DNA of 64,000 nt from Lelliottia wanjuensis. GTDB lineage: Bacteria > Pseudomonadota > Gammaproteobacteria > Enterobacterales > Enterobacteriaceae. Position 1 is the stretch's first letter. Each line of letters begins with the position of its first letter. Shown in pieces: positions 4,790-24,322 of this stretch. The DNA is taken from NCBI RefSeq assembly GCF_030238365.1, contig NZ_JASSOT010000065.1, positions 1 to 64,000 of the forward strand, written 5' to 3'. The position numbers and the translations under genes are program-made. The notes beneath the pieces were generated by a model. It worked only from the letters and a program-made list of their open reading frames with translations, ran no database searches and was not told the origin of the DNA.

Positions 4790-4823
4790 AGCAAAAAAAC
4801 CTCGCGGATGCGAGGTTTTTTTA
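4790..4823. terminator. pgl terminator, usable in both directions
   Basis: Stem ACCTCGC / GCGAGGT (4799-4816) with a four-base loop is followed by seven T on the plus strand and preceded by seven A. It ends pgl transcription and could also end a minus-strand transcript arriving from about 5000. Confidence 0.9.
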
Positions 4824-5002
4824 TGCCCGGTGGTAGCCGGAAAGCACGTCAATTATTACCAACACGACGATATTAATCCTTGCTGCCCGGTATGTAAAAT
4901 CGATTGATTAATAACTCAGGACATTGTGCCGGCCTCAGAAATCTATCTGTCTGATTTTAAGCGCTGGAAAGGCAAAACCTTTATAAATTCCTAATTAACC
5001 TT
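4824..5002. other. AT-rich intergenic region upstream of TisB-like ORF
   Basis: No open reading frame of note. The region lies between the pgl terminator and the LexA box. By analogy with tisB/istR it is the place to look for a divergent antitoxin RNA, which could terminate at the two-way hairpin at 4799-4816. I see no convincing minus-strand promoter, so no RNA gene is called. Confidence 0.3.
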
Positions 5003-5022
5003 AACTGGGTTTATATACAGTT
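5003..5022. promoter_or_regulatory. LexA box upstream of TisB-like ORF
   Basis: AACTGGGTTTATATACAGTT carries CTG-N10-CAG with an AT-rich core, close to the SOS consensus TACTG(TA)5CAGTA. A candidate -10 element TATACT follows at 5032-5037, with TTTATA (5010-5015) as a weak -35 inside the box, so LexA bound here would block the promoter. Confidence 0.8.
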
Positions 5023-5046
5023 TTTAGCGGGTATACTTCGTGGCGT

Positions 5047-5136
5047 ATGAGCGGTGTGGAATGGACGATCCTGTTCCTGCAACTCATGGTTGCGATTATG
5101 CAACTGCTGGATGCGTATCTTAAACTAAGAGCCTGA
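5047..5136 (+). CDS. tisB: TisB-like small hydrophobic SOS toxin peptide (29 aa)
   Basis: ATG to TGA encodes 29 residues, exactly the TisB length. Compared by eye with E. coli TisB, 15 of 29 positions are identical without gaps, including the LQLLDA-type block (residues 18-23, here MQLLDA) followed by LK. Residues 7-25 form one membrane helix with a central Gln and an Asp at 22, as in TisB, which inserts in the inner membrane, dissipates the proton-motive force and promotes persistence. A LexA box ends 25 bases before the ATG. The ribosome site is weak, as in tisB. No antitoxin RNA is identified. The E. coli tisB lies elsewhere on the chromosome, so the location between pgl and ybhC is unusual. 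Function is inferred. Confidence 0.72.
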   Translation: MSGVEWTILFLQLMVAIMQLLDAYLKLRA

Positions 5137-5151
5137 CGCATTCAGTCGCAG

Positions 5152-5179
5152 CAAAAAGGGGGATAATTATCCCCCTTTT
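5152..5179. terminator. Two-way terminator between TisB-like ORF and ybhC
   Basis: The palindrome AAAAGGGGGATAATTATCCC continuing to CCTTTT forms a perfect stem with A and T tracts on opposite sides. It can stop the short plus-strand SOS transcript and the minus-strand ybhC transcript. Confidence 0.88.
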
Positions 5180-5188
5180 GCTTATCTC

Positions 5189-23150: not shown

Positions 23151-23221
23151 AAGCGGCCAATGGCGAAAGTGCCATTTCCGCGCTACTATCGGCATAACCC
23201 ACGTTTTCGAAAATGAAAACA

Positions 23222-23325
23222 TACACTCTAGCCCTGGCGCCTGTGTCACTTGATATGGCGCCCTGGCCGTAGCGGAAACGCTACCAGGGTACAGAAAGAA
23301 ATGACTGTGCCTCCCGTACTGGAAA
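23222..23325 (+). ncRNA. Molybdenum cofactor (Moco) riboswitch
   Basis: The moaA leader carries the conserved pattern ACTCTAGCC near its start, a pair of long GC-rich helices (CTGGCGCC / GGCGCC and CCCTGG / CCAGGG), then GAAAGAAATGAC and CCTCCCGTA close to the GGAAAGG ribosome site. This is the layout of the E. coli moaA Moco RNA motif, which lowers translation when cofactor is plentiful. Confidence 0.88.
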
Positions 23326-23332
23326 GGTGTAC

Positions 23333-24322
23333 ATGGCTTCTCAACTCACAGATGCTTTCGCGCGTAAGTTTTTCTATTTACGTCTGTCGATTACCGATGT
23401 GTGCAATTTTCGTTGCACCTATTGCCTGCCGAACGGCTACAAGCCGGGCAGCGTCACCAACAACGGATTTCTCTCCGTCGACGAAGTGCGCCGCGTGACG
23501 CGCGCCTTCTCTGAGCTCGGCACGGAAAAAGTGCGTCTCACGGGTGGCGAACCCTCCCTGCGTCGTGATTTCCCCGACATCATCGCCGCCGTTCGCGAAA
23601 ATGCCAGCATTCATCAAATCGCCGTCACCACCAATGGCTATCGCTTAGCCCGCGATGTCACCCAGTGGCGCGATGCCGGTCTCACGGCCATCAACGTCAG
23701 CGTCGACAGCCTCGACGCGCGCCAGTTTCACGCCATTACCGGGCAGGATAAATTCCGCCAGGTGATGGAAGGCATCGACGCTGCGTTTGAAGCCGGTTTC
23801 GACAAGGTCAAAGTCAACACGGTGTTGATGCGCGATGTGAATCATCACCAGCTCGACACCTTCCTCGCGTGGGTCAAACCCCGCCGCATTCAACTGCGTT
23901 TTATTGAGCTGATGGAAACCGGCGAGGGCAGCGATCTGTTCCGCCGTCATCATATCTCCGGCATGGTGCTGCGCGATGAACTGCTCAAACGCGGCTGGAT
24001 CCACCAGATCCGCCAGCGCAGCGACGGCCCGGCGCAGGTCTTTTGTCACCCGGACTACGAAGGGGAAATAGGGCTTATCATGCCTTATGAGAAAGATTTC
24101 TGCGCCACCTGCAACCGTTTGCGCGTCTCCTCTGTCGGCAAACTGCATCTGTGCCTGTTCGGCGACGGCGGCGTGGATCTTCGCGATTTGCTGGAAGACG
24201 ATGCCCAACAGGACGCCCTCGAAGCACGCATTTCTGCGGCTCTGACGCATAAAAAACAGACCCATTTCCTGCATCAGGGCGACACCGGGATTACACAAAA
24301 CCTGTCCTACATCGGCGGGTAA
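23333..24322 (+). CDS. moaA: GTP 3',8-cyclase
   Basis: MoaA is the radical SAM enzyme that cyclises GTP in the first step of molybdopterin synthesis. The ATG at 23333 gives 329 residues, the E. coli length; a start two codons earlier is less likely. The N-terminal cluster cysteines are C24, C28 and C31 (CNFRCTYC), the second cluster lies in [18 protein letters not shown], and the protein ends in the catalytic Gly-Gly tail. First gene of moaABCDE, under ModE and riboswitch control. Confidence 0.98.

What the first reader, a model, noticed from the sequence alone, without database searches (positions are those of the whole stretch)
5003..5179. TisB-like SOS toxin gene at a new location between pgl and ybhC
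A 29-codon ORF directly behind a good LexA box encodes a peptide of exactly TisB length with 15 of 29 residues identical to E. coli TisB (compared by memory, no gaps), including the LLDA block, the central Gln and Asp22. A two-way terminator follows, giving a compact gene. E. coli tisB lies elsewhere, and E. coli has other genes between pgl and ybhC. It is short enough to be missed by standard gene callers.
Basis: partly seen in the sequence, partly recalled or inferred. Interest (0 to 1): 0.85.

Follow-up and report, generated by a model that had tools for sequence, protein, structure and literature searches.

The report
Second TisB toxin gene, leader deleted
The window holds a cut-down copy of a second version of the DNA-damage toxin gene tisB and its matching antitoxin RNA gene, complete in some related Enterobacter and Leclercia but here without the leader that the antitoxin would bind.

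Summary
The 29-codon ORF (5047-5136) is TisB family: Pfam 33.6 bits (cut-off 25), NCBIfam TIGR04459 42.5 (cut-off 38). But it is a paralogue ("tisB2"): the genome also has the usual tisB/istR locus between emrD and ivbL.

A divergent istR-like RNA gene ("istR2", 4794-4863, minus strand) scores 82.4 bits with a model built from relatives only, though below Rfam's cut-off (31.3 of 45).

17 of 61 genus genomes carry tisB2, each between pgl and ybhC; 13 look intact, as does one in another genus. There a LexA box lies 209-219 bases before the ATG, followed by a tisB-like leader with a Shine-Dalgarno site and a 21-23-base target that co-varies with its own istR2 (0 of 100,000 permutations as good).

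In the window species (both genomes held) about 174 bases of leader are gone: the LexA promoter abuts the ATG; Shine-Dalgarno site and target are missing. The compactness is a deletion scar.

All 18 TisB2 peptides have Gln12, where E. coli TisB needs lysine (PMC11449926). Toxicity is untested. Paper searches found no description of the paralogue.

The parts
4794..4863 (-). istR2: predicted antitoxin small RNA gene (70 nt), divergent from tisB2
   Evidence: 82.4 bits, E 4.9e-17 in the window, with a covariance model built from 13 relatives, window species not included; Rfam istR RF01400 31.3 bits, below gathering score 45
4870..4898 (-). promoter-like site of istR2 (TTTACA, 17 nt, TAATAT)
   Evidence: consensus scan 9 of 12; the scan of this region found 3 sites against 0.9 expected; similar hexamers seen by eye in two relatives (G056, G010)
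4842..4863 (-). antisense core of istR2, now without a target in the tisB2 transcript
   Evidence: aligned core in relatives; 9 edits to the best place in 5038-5188, shuffles mean 8.9
4793..4822 (.). two-way terminator hairpin shared by pgl (+) and istR2 (-)
   Evidence: sequence; the hairpin stands also in the short spacers of genomes without tisB2
5003..5022 (+). LexA box AACTGGGTTTATATACAGTT (core 5005-5020)
   Evidence: a box also in 14 of 14 intact relatives, in G059 and in G035
5032..5037 (+). -10 hexamer TATACT; expected transcript start about 5043-5046, 1-4 bases before the ATG
   Evidence: start position inferred from spacing, not measured
5038..5046 (+). deletion scar: about 174 bases of leader missing relative to relatives, including Shine-Dalgarno site and antitoxin target
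   Evidence: LexA box start to ATG is 44 bases here and in G059, 209-219 in 14 intact copies; alignment
5047..5136 (+). tisB2 ORF, 29 aa, Gln12
5154..5179 (+). terminator of tisB2

Best explanation
tisB2-istR2 is an old second copy of the tisB/istR type I toxin-antitoxin module, at a fixed site between pgl and ybhC in members of Enterobacter, Leclercia, Silvania and one further, unnamed genus. In intact copies LexA represses a structured toxin mRNA. IstR2, a divergent and probably constitutive RNA, pairs with a 21-23-base leader site whose sequence differs from that of tisB1, so each antitoxin should serve mainly its own toxin. After DNA damage the mRNA should exceed the antitoxin and the 29-aa membrane peptide is made. 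In the window species one deletion of about 174 bases joined the LexA promoter to the start codon: the mRNA is leaderless or nearly so, lacks a Shine-Dalgarno site and cannot be bound by IstR2. I think it most likely that this copy is poorly translated, under LexA control alone, tolerated because output is low and/or the Gln12 peptide is weak, with istR2 left without its target. Shown: sequences, families, deletion, co-variation. Inferred: transcription, translation level, toxicity, antitoxin action.
For: Family cut-offs met. Second, canonical locus in the same genome. tisB2 in 17 of 61 genus genomes, with pgl and ybhC beside all 17 and beside the copy in G395. IstR2 model: 19 of 61 genomes at 74.7 bits or more (the 17 plus relics in G001 and G033), next best 51.9. 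Antisense core and target: 11 distinct pairs from 15 loci, mean 1.8 edits cognate against 4.8 non-cognate, 0 of 100,000 permutations as good; with 7 representatives that I chose, the true pairing is the best of 5040. Those 7 cores are 7-10 edits from the tisB1 target. Duplex energy is lower for the own than for the other toxin in 9 of 9 intact genomes tested, for both antitoxins. Leader deletion in both genomes of the species. The window transcript has no target for IstR2 (9 edits, chance level) and none seen for IstR1 (9 edits, against 1 in own tisB1; no shuffle run for IstR1). ORF under purifying selection overall (pooled pN/pS 0.43; tisB1 0.375). Module and flank distances correlate (Mantel r 0.75, n 14), fitting vertical descent. 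An SD-free leader lowered 3xFLAG-TisB about 10-fold, and an sYFP2 reporter about 180-fold, yet still gave TisB effects in E. coli (PMC11575346 passages; PMC11449926 section 5).
Against: No transcript or phenotype data. The ORF is still open in both genomes of the window species, which differ in it by one synonymous base, so decay is not proven. The low divergence of the deleted locus (4 of 267) equals that of 27 other intergenic stretches (89 of 5583), so it shows neither constraint nor decay. Core and target do not always fit best with their own partner: the G003 core is 1 edit from the G045 target and 2 from its own, the G023 core 1 from the G053 and G012 targets and 2 from its own. Relatedness of the sequences can inflate the permutation test. 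Duplex energies from unrestricted folding also gave strong values for the wrong partner (-44 to -62 kcal/mol), so strict insulation is not shown. The consensus fold of the leader had no shuffled control.
Confidence: 0.75

Rival explanations
1. The window allele is a functional, simplified SOS gene: a leaderless mRNA under LexA control alone, making a low dose of TisB2 without antitoxin.
For: Promoter, LexA box, ORF and terminator are intact in both genomes held; SD-free tisB still acts in E. coli at about a tenth of the protein level (PMC11575346, passages).
Against: No good Shine-Dalgarno match in 5020-5046 (best 4 of 6, placed before the -10); 1-4 extra bases before the ATG are predicted; other copies or relics in the genus are plainly broken (G041, G001, G033), so the module is often lost.
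Confidence: 0.2
2. TisB2 lost pore activity when Lys12 became Gln, and the module persists for another use, for example TisB2 joining TisB1 oligomers and damping them.
For: 18 of 18 TisB2 have Gln12, 20 of 20 TisB1 examined have Lys12. K12L, K12D and K12R were non-functional in E. coli (PMC11449926, section 5 and passages). Leader, LexA box and antitoxin are still conserved in intact copies.
Against: K12Q is not mentioned in that paper's main text (0 occurrences). A dedicated co-evolving antitoxin is odd for a harmless peptide. No interaction data.
Confidence: 0.15
3. Chance ORF with a fortuitous resemblance to TisB.
For: The LexA pattern alone is at chance level in the window; the ORF is only 29 codons.
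Against: Profile cut-offs passed; ORF, leader, box and RNA conserved in 13 intact genus copies and one outside it; best identity elsewhere in the window 10 of 29.
Confidence: 0.01

Closest known systems
tisB/istR-1 type I toxin-antitoxin system (E. coli; Pfam PF13939, NCBIfam TIGR04459, Rfam RF01400)
   Same: 29-aa peptide with Gln19, Asp22 and (17 of 18) Lys26; LexA box about 210-220 bases before the ATG in intact copies; divergent sRNA complementary to the leader; shared leader blocks such as TCCTGGCTG, CGGGTGGTGCCG and ACAGGC; predicted RBS-proximal GGAGCA/TGCTC pairing
   Different: Other locus (pgl-ybhC); Gln12 for Lys12, Trp6 for Met6, no basic residue 29; antisense/target sequence of 21-23 bases that varies between species; IstR2 below the Rfam gathering score; in the window species the leader is deleted
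p0SD-tisB laboratory construct (PMC11575346, PMC11449926)
   Same: tisB ORF behind a short leader without Shine-Dalgarno site and without antitoxin target
   Different: Artificial 20-bp leader and arabinose promoter; the window allele is natural, has an SOS-type promoter, a predicted leader of 1-4 bases and a Gln12 peptide
zor/orz and dinQ/agrB type I systems
   Same: Short membrane peptides; zor mRNA is also inactive until processed and its antitoxin binds far upstream of the RBS (PMC7708055, passages); dinQ recalled only
   Different: No Zor or DinQ model appeared in the Pfam and NCBIfam scans, only TisB models passed cut-offs; no direct alignment with ZorO or DinQ was made

Membership tests
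TisB peptide family (PF13939 / TIGR04459) | score above curated cut-off | tested here: met
   Window 33.6/25 and 42.5/38. Of 9 TisB2 peptides given, 9 pass Pfam and 7 pass TIGR04459 (L028 36.7 and L049 34.0 do not); the other TisB model NF011340 (cut-off 53) is missed by all 9 and met by own TisB1 (56)
TisB toxin function as in E. coli | Lys12 (K12L, K12D, K12R inactive) | tested here: not met
   Gln12 in 18 of 18; requirement from PMC11449926
TisB toxin function as in E. coli | Gln19 | tested here: met
   18 of 18
TisB toxin function as in E. coli | at least one positive C-terminal residue (K26 or K29) | tested here: met
   Window Lys26 and Arg28; Lys26 in 17 of 18, but G039 has Gln26 and Ala29
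IstR RNA (Rfam RF01400) | score above gathering 45 bits | tested here: not met
   Window 31.3. Of 17 sources scanned at E 0.05, istR is listed for three: L049 34.7, L091 (G001 relic) 32.1, L001 (window) 31.3, all below 45
tisB/istR-type type I module | divergent RNA complementary to the toxin mRNA leader | tested here: not met
   Met in 15 relatives; in the window the RNA gene is present (82.4 bits) but the target is gone
tisB/istR-type type I module | LexA-controlled toxin promoter | tested here: met
   LexA box in 17 of 18 tisB2 loci, absent in G041; sequence only, binding not testable
tisB/istR-type type I module | long leader with sequestered RBS and standby pseudoknot | tested here: inconclusive
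   Relatives: consensus fold with RBS-proximal stem, 4 of 30 pairs with double changes, no shuffled control; pseudoknot not modelled. Window: leader deleted
type I toxin-antitoxin system | peptide toxic, RNA suppresses it | not testable with these tools
   needs expression in a laboratory strain

The most novel reading that the evidence does not exclude
TisB2 is an SOS-induced paralogue that works without the lysine thought indispensable for TisB, either as a pore of different polarity (Gln12/Gln19 face) or as a partner that tunes TisB1 oligomers, with an antitoxin whose pairing sequence is re-written from species to species; the window species carries a natural antitoxin-blind, leaderless form of it.
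Probability: 0.2. Interest if true: 0.72.

Novelty: new variant of a known kind. Interest (0 to 1): 0.52.

Why it matters
If right, some Enterobacter and Leclercia species have two SOS-controlled TisB modules with separate antitoxins, which bears on persistence after DNA-damaging antibiotics and on how type I pairs keep apart after duplication. The natural set (Gln12 in all 18 copies, several antisense classes, a leader-deleted allele) makes three questions directly testable: is Lys12 really required, how far can an antisense core drift before pairing is lost, and what does tisB do without its leader control.

Tried and rejected
Chance ORF: rejected by profile scores and conservation. LexA box as evidence on its own: rejected, chance level in the window. 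Slow evolution of the deleted locus within the species as a sign of function: against synonymous sites of pgl and ybhC it looked constrained (4 of 267 against 44 of about 550, Fisher p 9e-5), but 27 other intergenic stretches of the window evolve equally slowly (89 of 5583), so the argument was dropped. Duplex energies as the measure of antitoxin specificity: unrestricted folding runs beyond the core; edit distances were used instead. In one search one core (G045) was cut short by my pattern, and 5 tisB1 loci (G021, G053, G004, G003, G047) gave no sRNA by my pattern and were left out; the cross-table covered 9 intact genomes plus G000 and G059. In one search the box printed for tisB1 of G021 (11 of 20) is not a convincing LexA box and is left out of the 220-224 range. 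Mobile origin: in the plasmid and phage collections (8 and 5 records) no place covers 80% of an intact module; the matches lie in the leader-to-ORF part, and 5 of 13 are annotated as tisB; the one opened (H1) is the canonical locus by ivbL. Codon 12 printed came from a wrong index; corrected. Family-wide search: 10 of 392 genomes with a hit at 1e-4, of which G000, G039 and G395 are tisB2 and 7 canonical tisB; more diverged copies in other genera could be missed. Papers: searches showed nothing on a tisB paralogue; only listings were seen, except PMC7708055 (introduction and passages), PMC11449926 (section 5 and passages) and PMC11575346 (passages). Other papers in those listings were not opened.

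Full report
Observation. ORF 5047-5136 (+) encodes a 29-aa peptide. It passes the Pfam TisB cut-off (33.6 against 25) and that of NCBIfam TIGR04459 (42.5 against 38), but not that of NF011340 (32.1 against 53). It is identical to E. coli 13E0780 TisB at 16 of 29 positions and to the genome's own TisB at 15 of 29; the best value against E. coli TisB elsewhere in the window is 10, and in 50 shuffles 11. A LexA-like box at 5005-5020 precedes a -10 hexamer at 5032-5037. The box pattern alone is at chance level in the window (15 found, 17 expected).

A second copy. The genome (G000, 5.37 Mb, 79 contigs) has two TisB places: the window, and C14:85000-85077, with a full istR (RF01400, 95.8 bits) divergent from it. 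The second lies between a gene that scores as EmrD (662.9, cut-off 479) and a peptide that matches IvbL just under its cut-off (58.1 of 60), as in E. coli (ivbL, tisB, emrD). The window gene is therefore a paralogue, here called tisB2.

A partner RNA. The second-best istR match of the whole genome (31.3 bits, gathering 45) lies at 4794-4916 on the minus strand, divergent from tisB2. A covariance model built from 13 relatives without the window species finds 4794-4863 (-) at 82.4 bits. In 61 genus genomes the model gives 74.7 bits or more in 19 (the 17 with tisB2, plus G001 and G033, which hold remnants) and at most 51.9 in the others; many of those weaker matches are the pgl terminator hairpin, others lie elsewhere (the list is capped at its weak end).

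Distribution. With the window peptide as query, 59 of 61 genus genomes match at E 0.1: 17 have a tisB2-type match (E 3.1e-6 or better), and 42 have only one weaker match (E 7.4e-4 or worse), which in the 13 such loci examined is canonical tisB. All 17 tisB2 copies and G395 (another genus, 1 of 4 genomes there) have pgl and ybhC as neighbours. The spacer of 60 genus genomes could be looked at (G044 gave no pgl match). Of the 43 without tisB2, 39 have 59-141 bases between pgl and ybhC (G033 among them, with an istR2 remnant), G001 has a 225-base remnant, G054 an unrelated insert, and G036 and G011 have no ybhC within the 1.5 kb behind pgl. Records identical over the shared stretch give names: G038 E. 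cloacae DSM 26481, G016 E. chuandaensis, G041 E. sichuanensis, G056 Leclercia sp. 29361, G023 Silvania confinis; the tool puts all of these in the window's genus. The window species itself was not named. Module and flanking-gene distances correlate (r 0.75, 14 loci), which fits vertical descent with repeated loss.

Anatomy of intact copies. In 13 genus copies and G395 a LexA box starts 209-219 bases before the ATG (canonical tisB: 220-224 in 19 of 20), followed by a leader alignable with that of tisB1, a Shine-Dalgarno AAGGAG and the ORF. The consensus fold pairs GGAGCA with TGCTC near the RBS; 4 of 30 pairs show changes on both sides, without a shuffled control. The istR2 5' end repeats, in antisense, a 21-23-base leader site. 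Eleven distinct core/target pairs from 15 loci (G035 included) differ by 1.8 edits on average when cognate and 4.8 when not; 0 of 100,000 permutations were as good; among 7 representatives that I chose the true pairing is the best of 5040. Core and target have equal length in each pair. Not every core fits its own target best: G003 is closer to the G045 target, and G023 to those of G053 and G012, by one edit. The 7 cores lie 7-10 edits from the tisB1 target, and duplex energies favour the own toxin in 9 of 9 genomes for both antitoxins, though wrong pairs also score well. This is good sequence evidence for a separate antitoxin that co-evolves with its toxin mRNA.

The window allele. Here and in the only other genome held of the species (G059) the LexA box starts 44 bases before the ATG. 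Compared with copies of 218 bases, about 174 bases are missing: the 5' end of the mRNA, the antitoxin target, the RBS stem and the Shine-Dalgarno site. The -10 hexamer predicts a start at about 5043-5046, hence a leaderless or near-leaderless mRNA (inference). No place in 5038-5188 matches the IstR2 core (9 edits, shuffles mean 8.9) or the own IstR1 core (9 edits, against 1 edit in own tisB1; no shuffle for IstR1). The allele should be blind to both antitoxins. Other copies carry other damage: G041 lost the promoter region, apparently between the two repeats (core and target), and has a stop at codon 6; G035 has an insertion before the Shine-Dalgarno site that matches Rfam V_AS5 at 37.3 bits (gathering 96) and resembles an ERIC element (resemblance recalled).

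Function. E. coli TisB variants K12L, K12D and K12R were non-functional, Q19L too, and one C-terminal lysine was needed (PMC11449926; section 5 and passages). All 18 TisB2 peptides have Gln12 (codon CAA) and Gln19; all 20 TisB1 examined have Lys12 (AAA). K12Q does not occur in that paper's main text. Yet the TisB2 ORF shows purifying selection (pooled pN/pS 0.43 over 15 distinct ORFs of 18, broken copies included; TisB1 0.375 over 14 of 20). So either Gln12 works in this background or the module serves another end. An SD-free leader cut 3xFLAG-TisB about 10-fold and an sYFP2 reporter about 180-fold in E. coli, and still gave TisB effects (PMC11575346, passages; PMC11449926), so the window allele cannot be called silent from sequence alone. 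Divergence within the species gives no help: the locus evolves like other intergenic DNA.

Verdict. The finding is real, better than stated in one way (a paralogous module with its own antitoxin) and weaker in another (in this genome the module is cut down and probably no longer regulated as a toxin-antitoxin pair). The peptide family is known and database models already cover most of these peptides; the paralogous module was not found in the papers searched.

Noticed in passing
window 23212-23345: Molybdenum cofactor riboswitch (Rfam RF01055, 90.2 bits), ahead of an ORF at 23327; an expected feature upstream of moa genes (recalled).
   Followed up: no
L020 / L043 (G041, E. sichuanensis): tisB2 copy that lost LexA box and promoter, apparently between the istR2 core and its target repeat, and has a stop at codon 6.
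   Followed up: partly
L015 1361-1480: ERIC-like insertion (resemblance recalled) between leader and Shine-Dalgarno site of tisB2 in G035; Rfam V_AS5 37.3 bits, below cut-off.
   Followed up: partly
L119 (G054): Unrelated sequence of at least 700 bases stands before ybhC in place of the short spacer; a stretch like the tisB2 terminator remains at its ybhC end.
   Followed up: no
L060 and L067 (G021, G004): Upstream region of the canonical tisB1 does not show the usual istR at the expected place; in L060 no good LexA box either, so foreign DNA may lie there.
   Followed up: no
L114 (G033): istR2-like remnant (74.7 bits) after pgl without any tisB2.
   Followed up: partly
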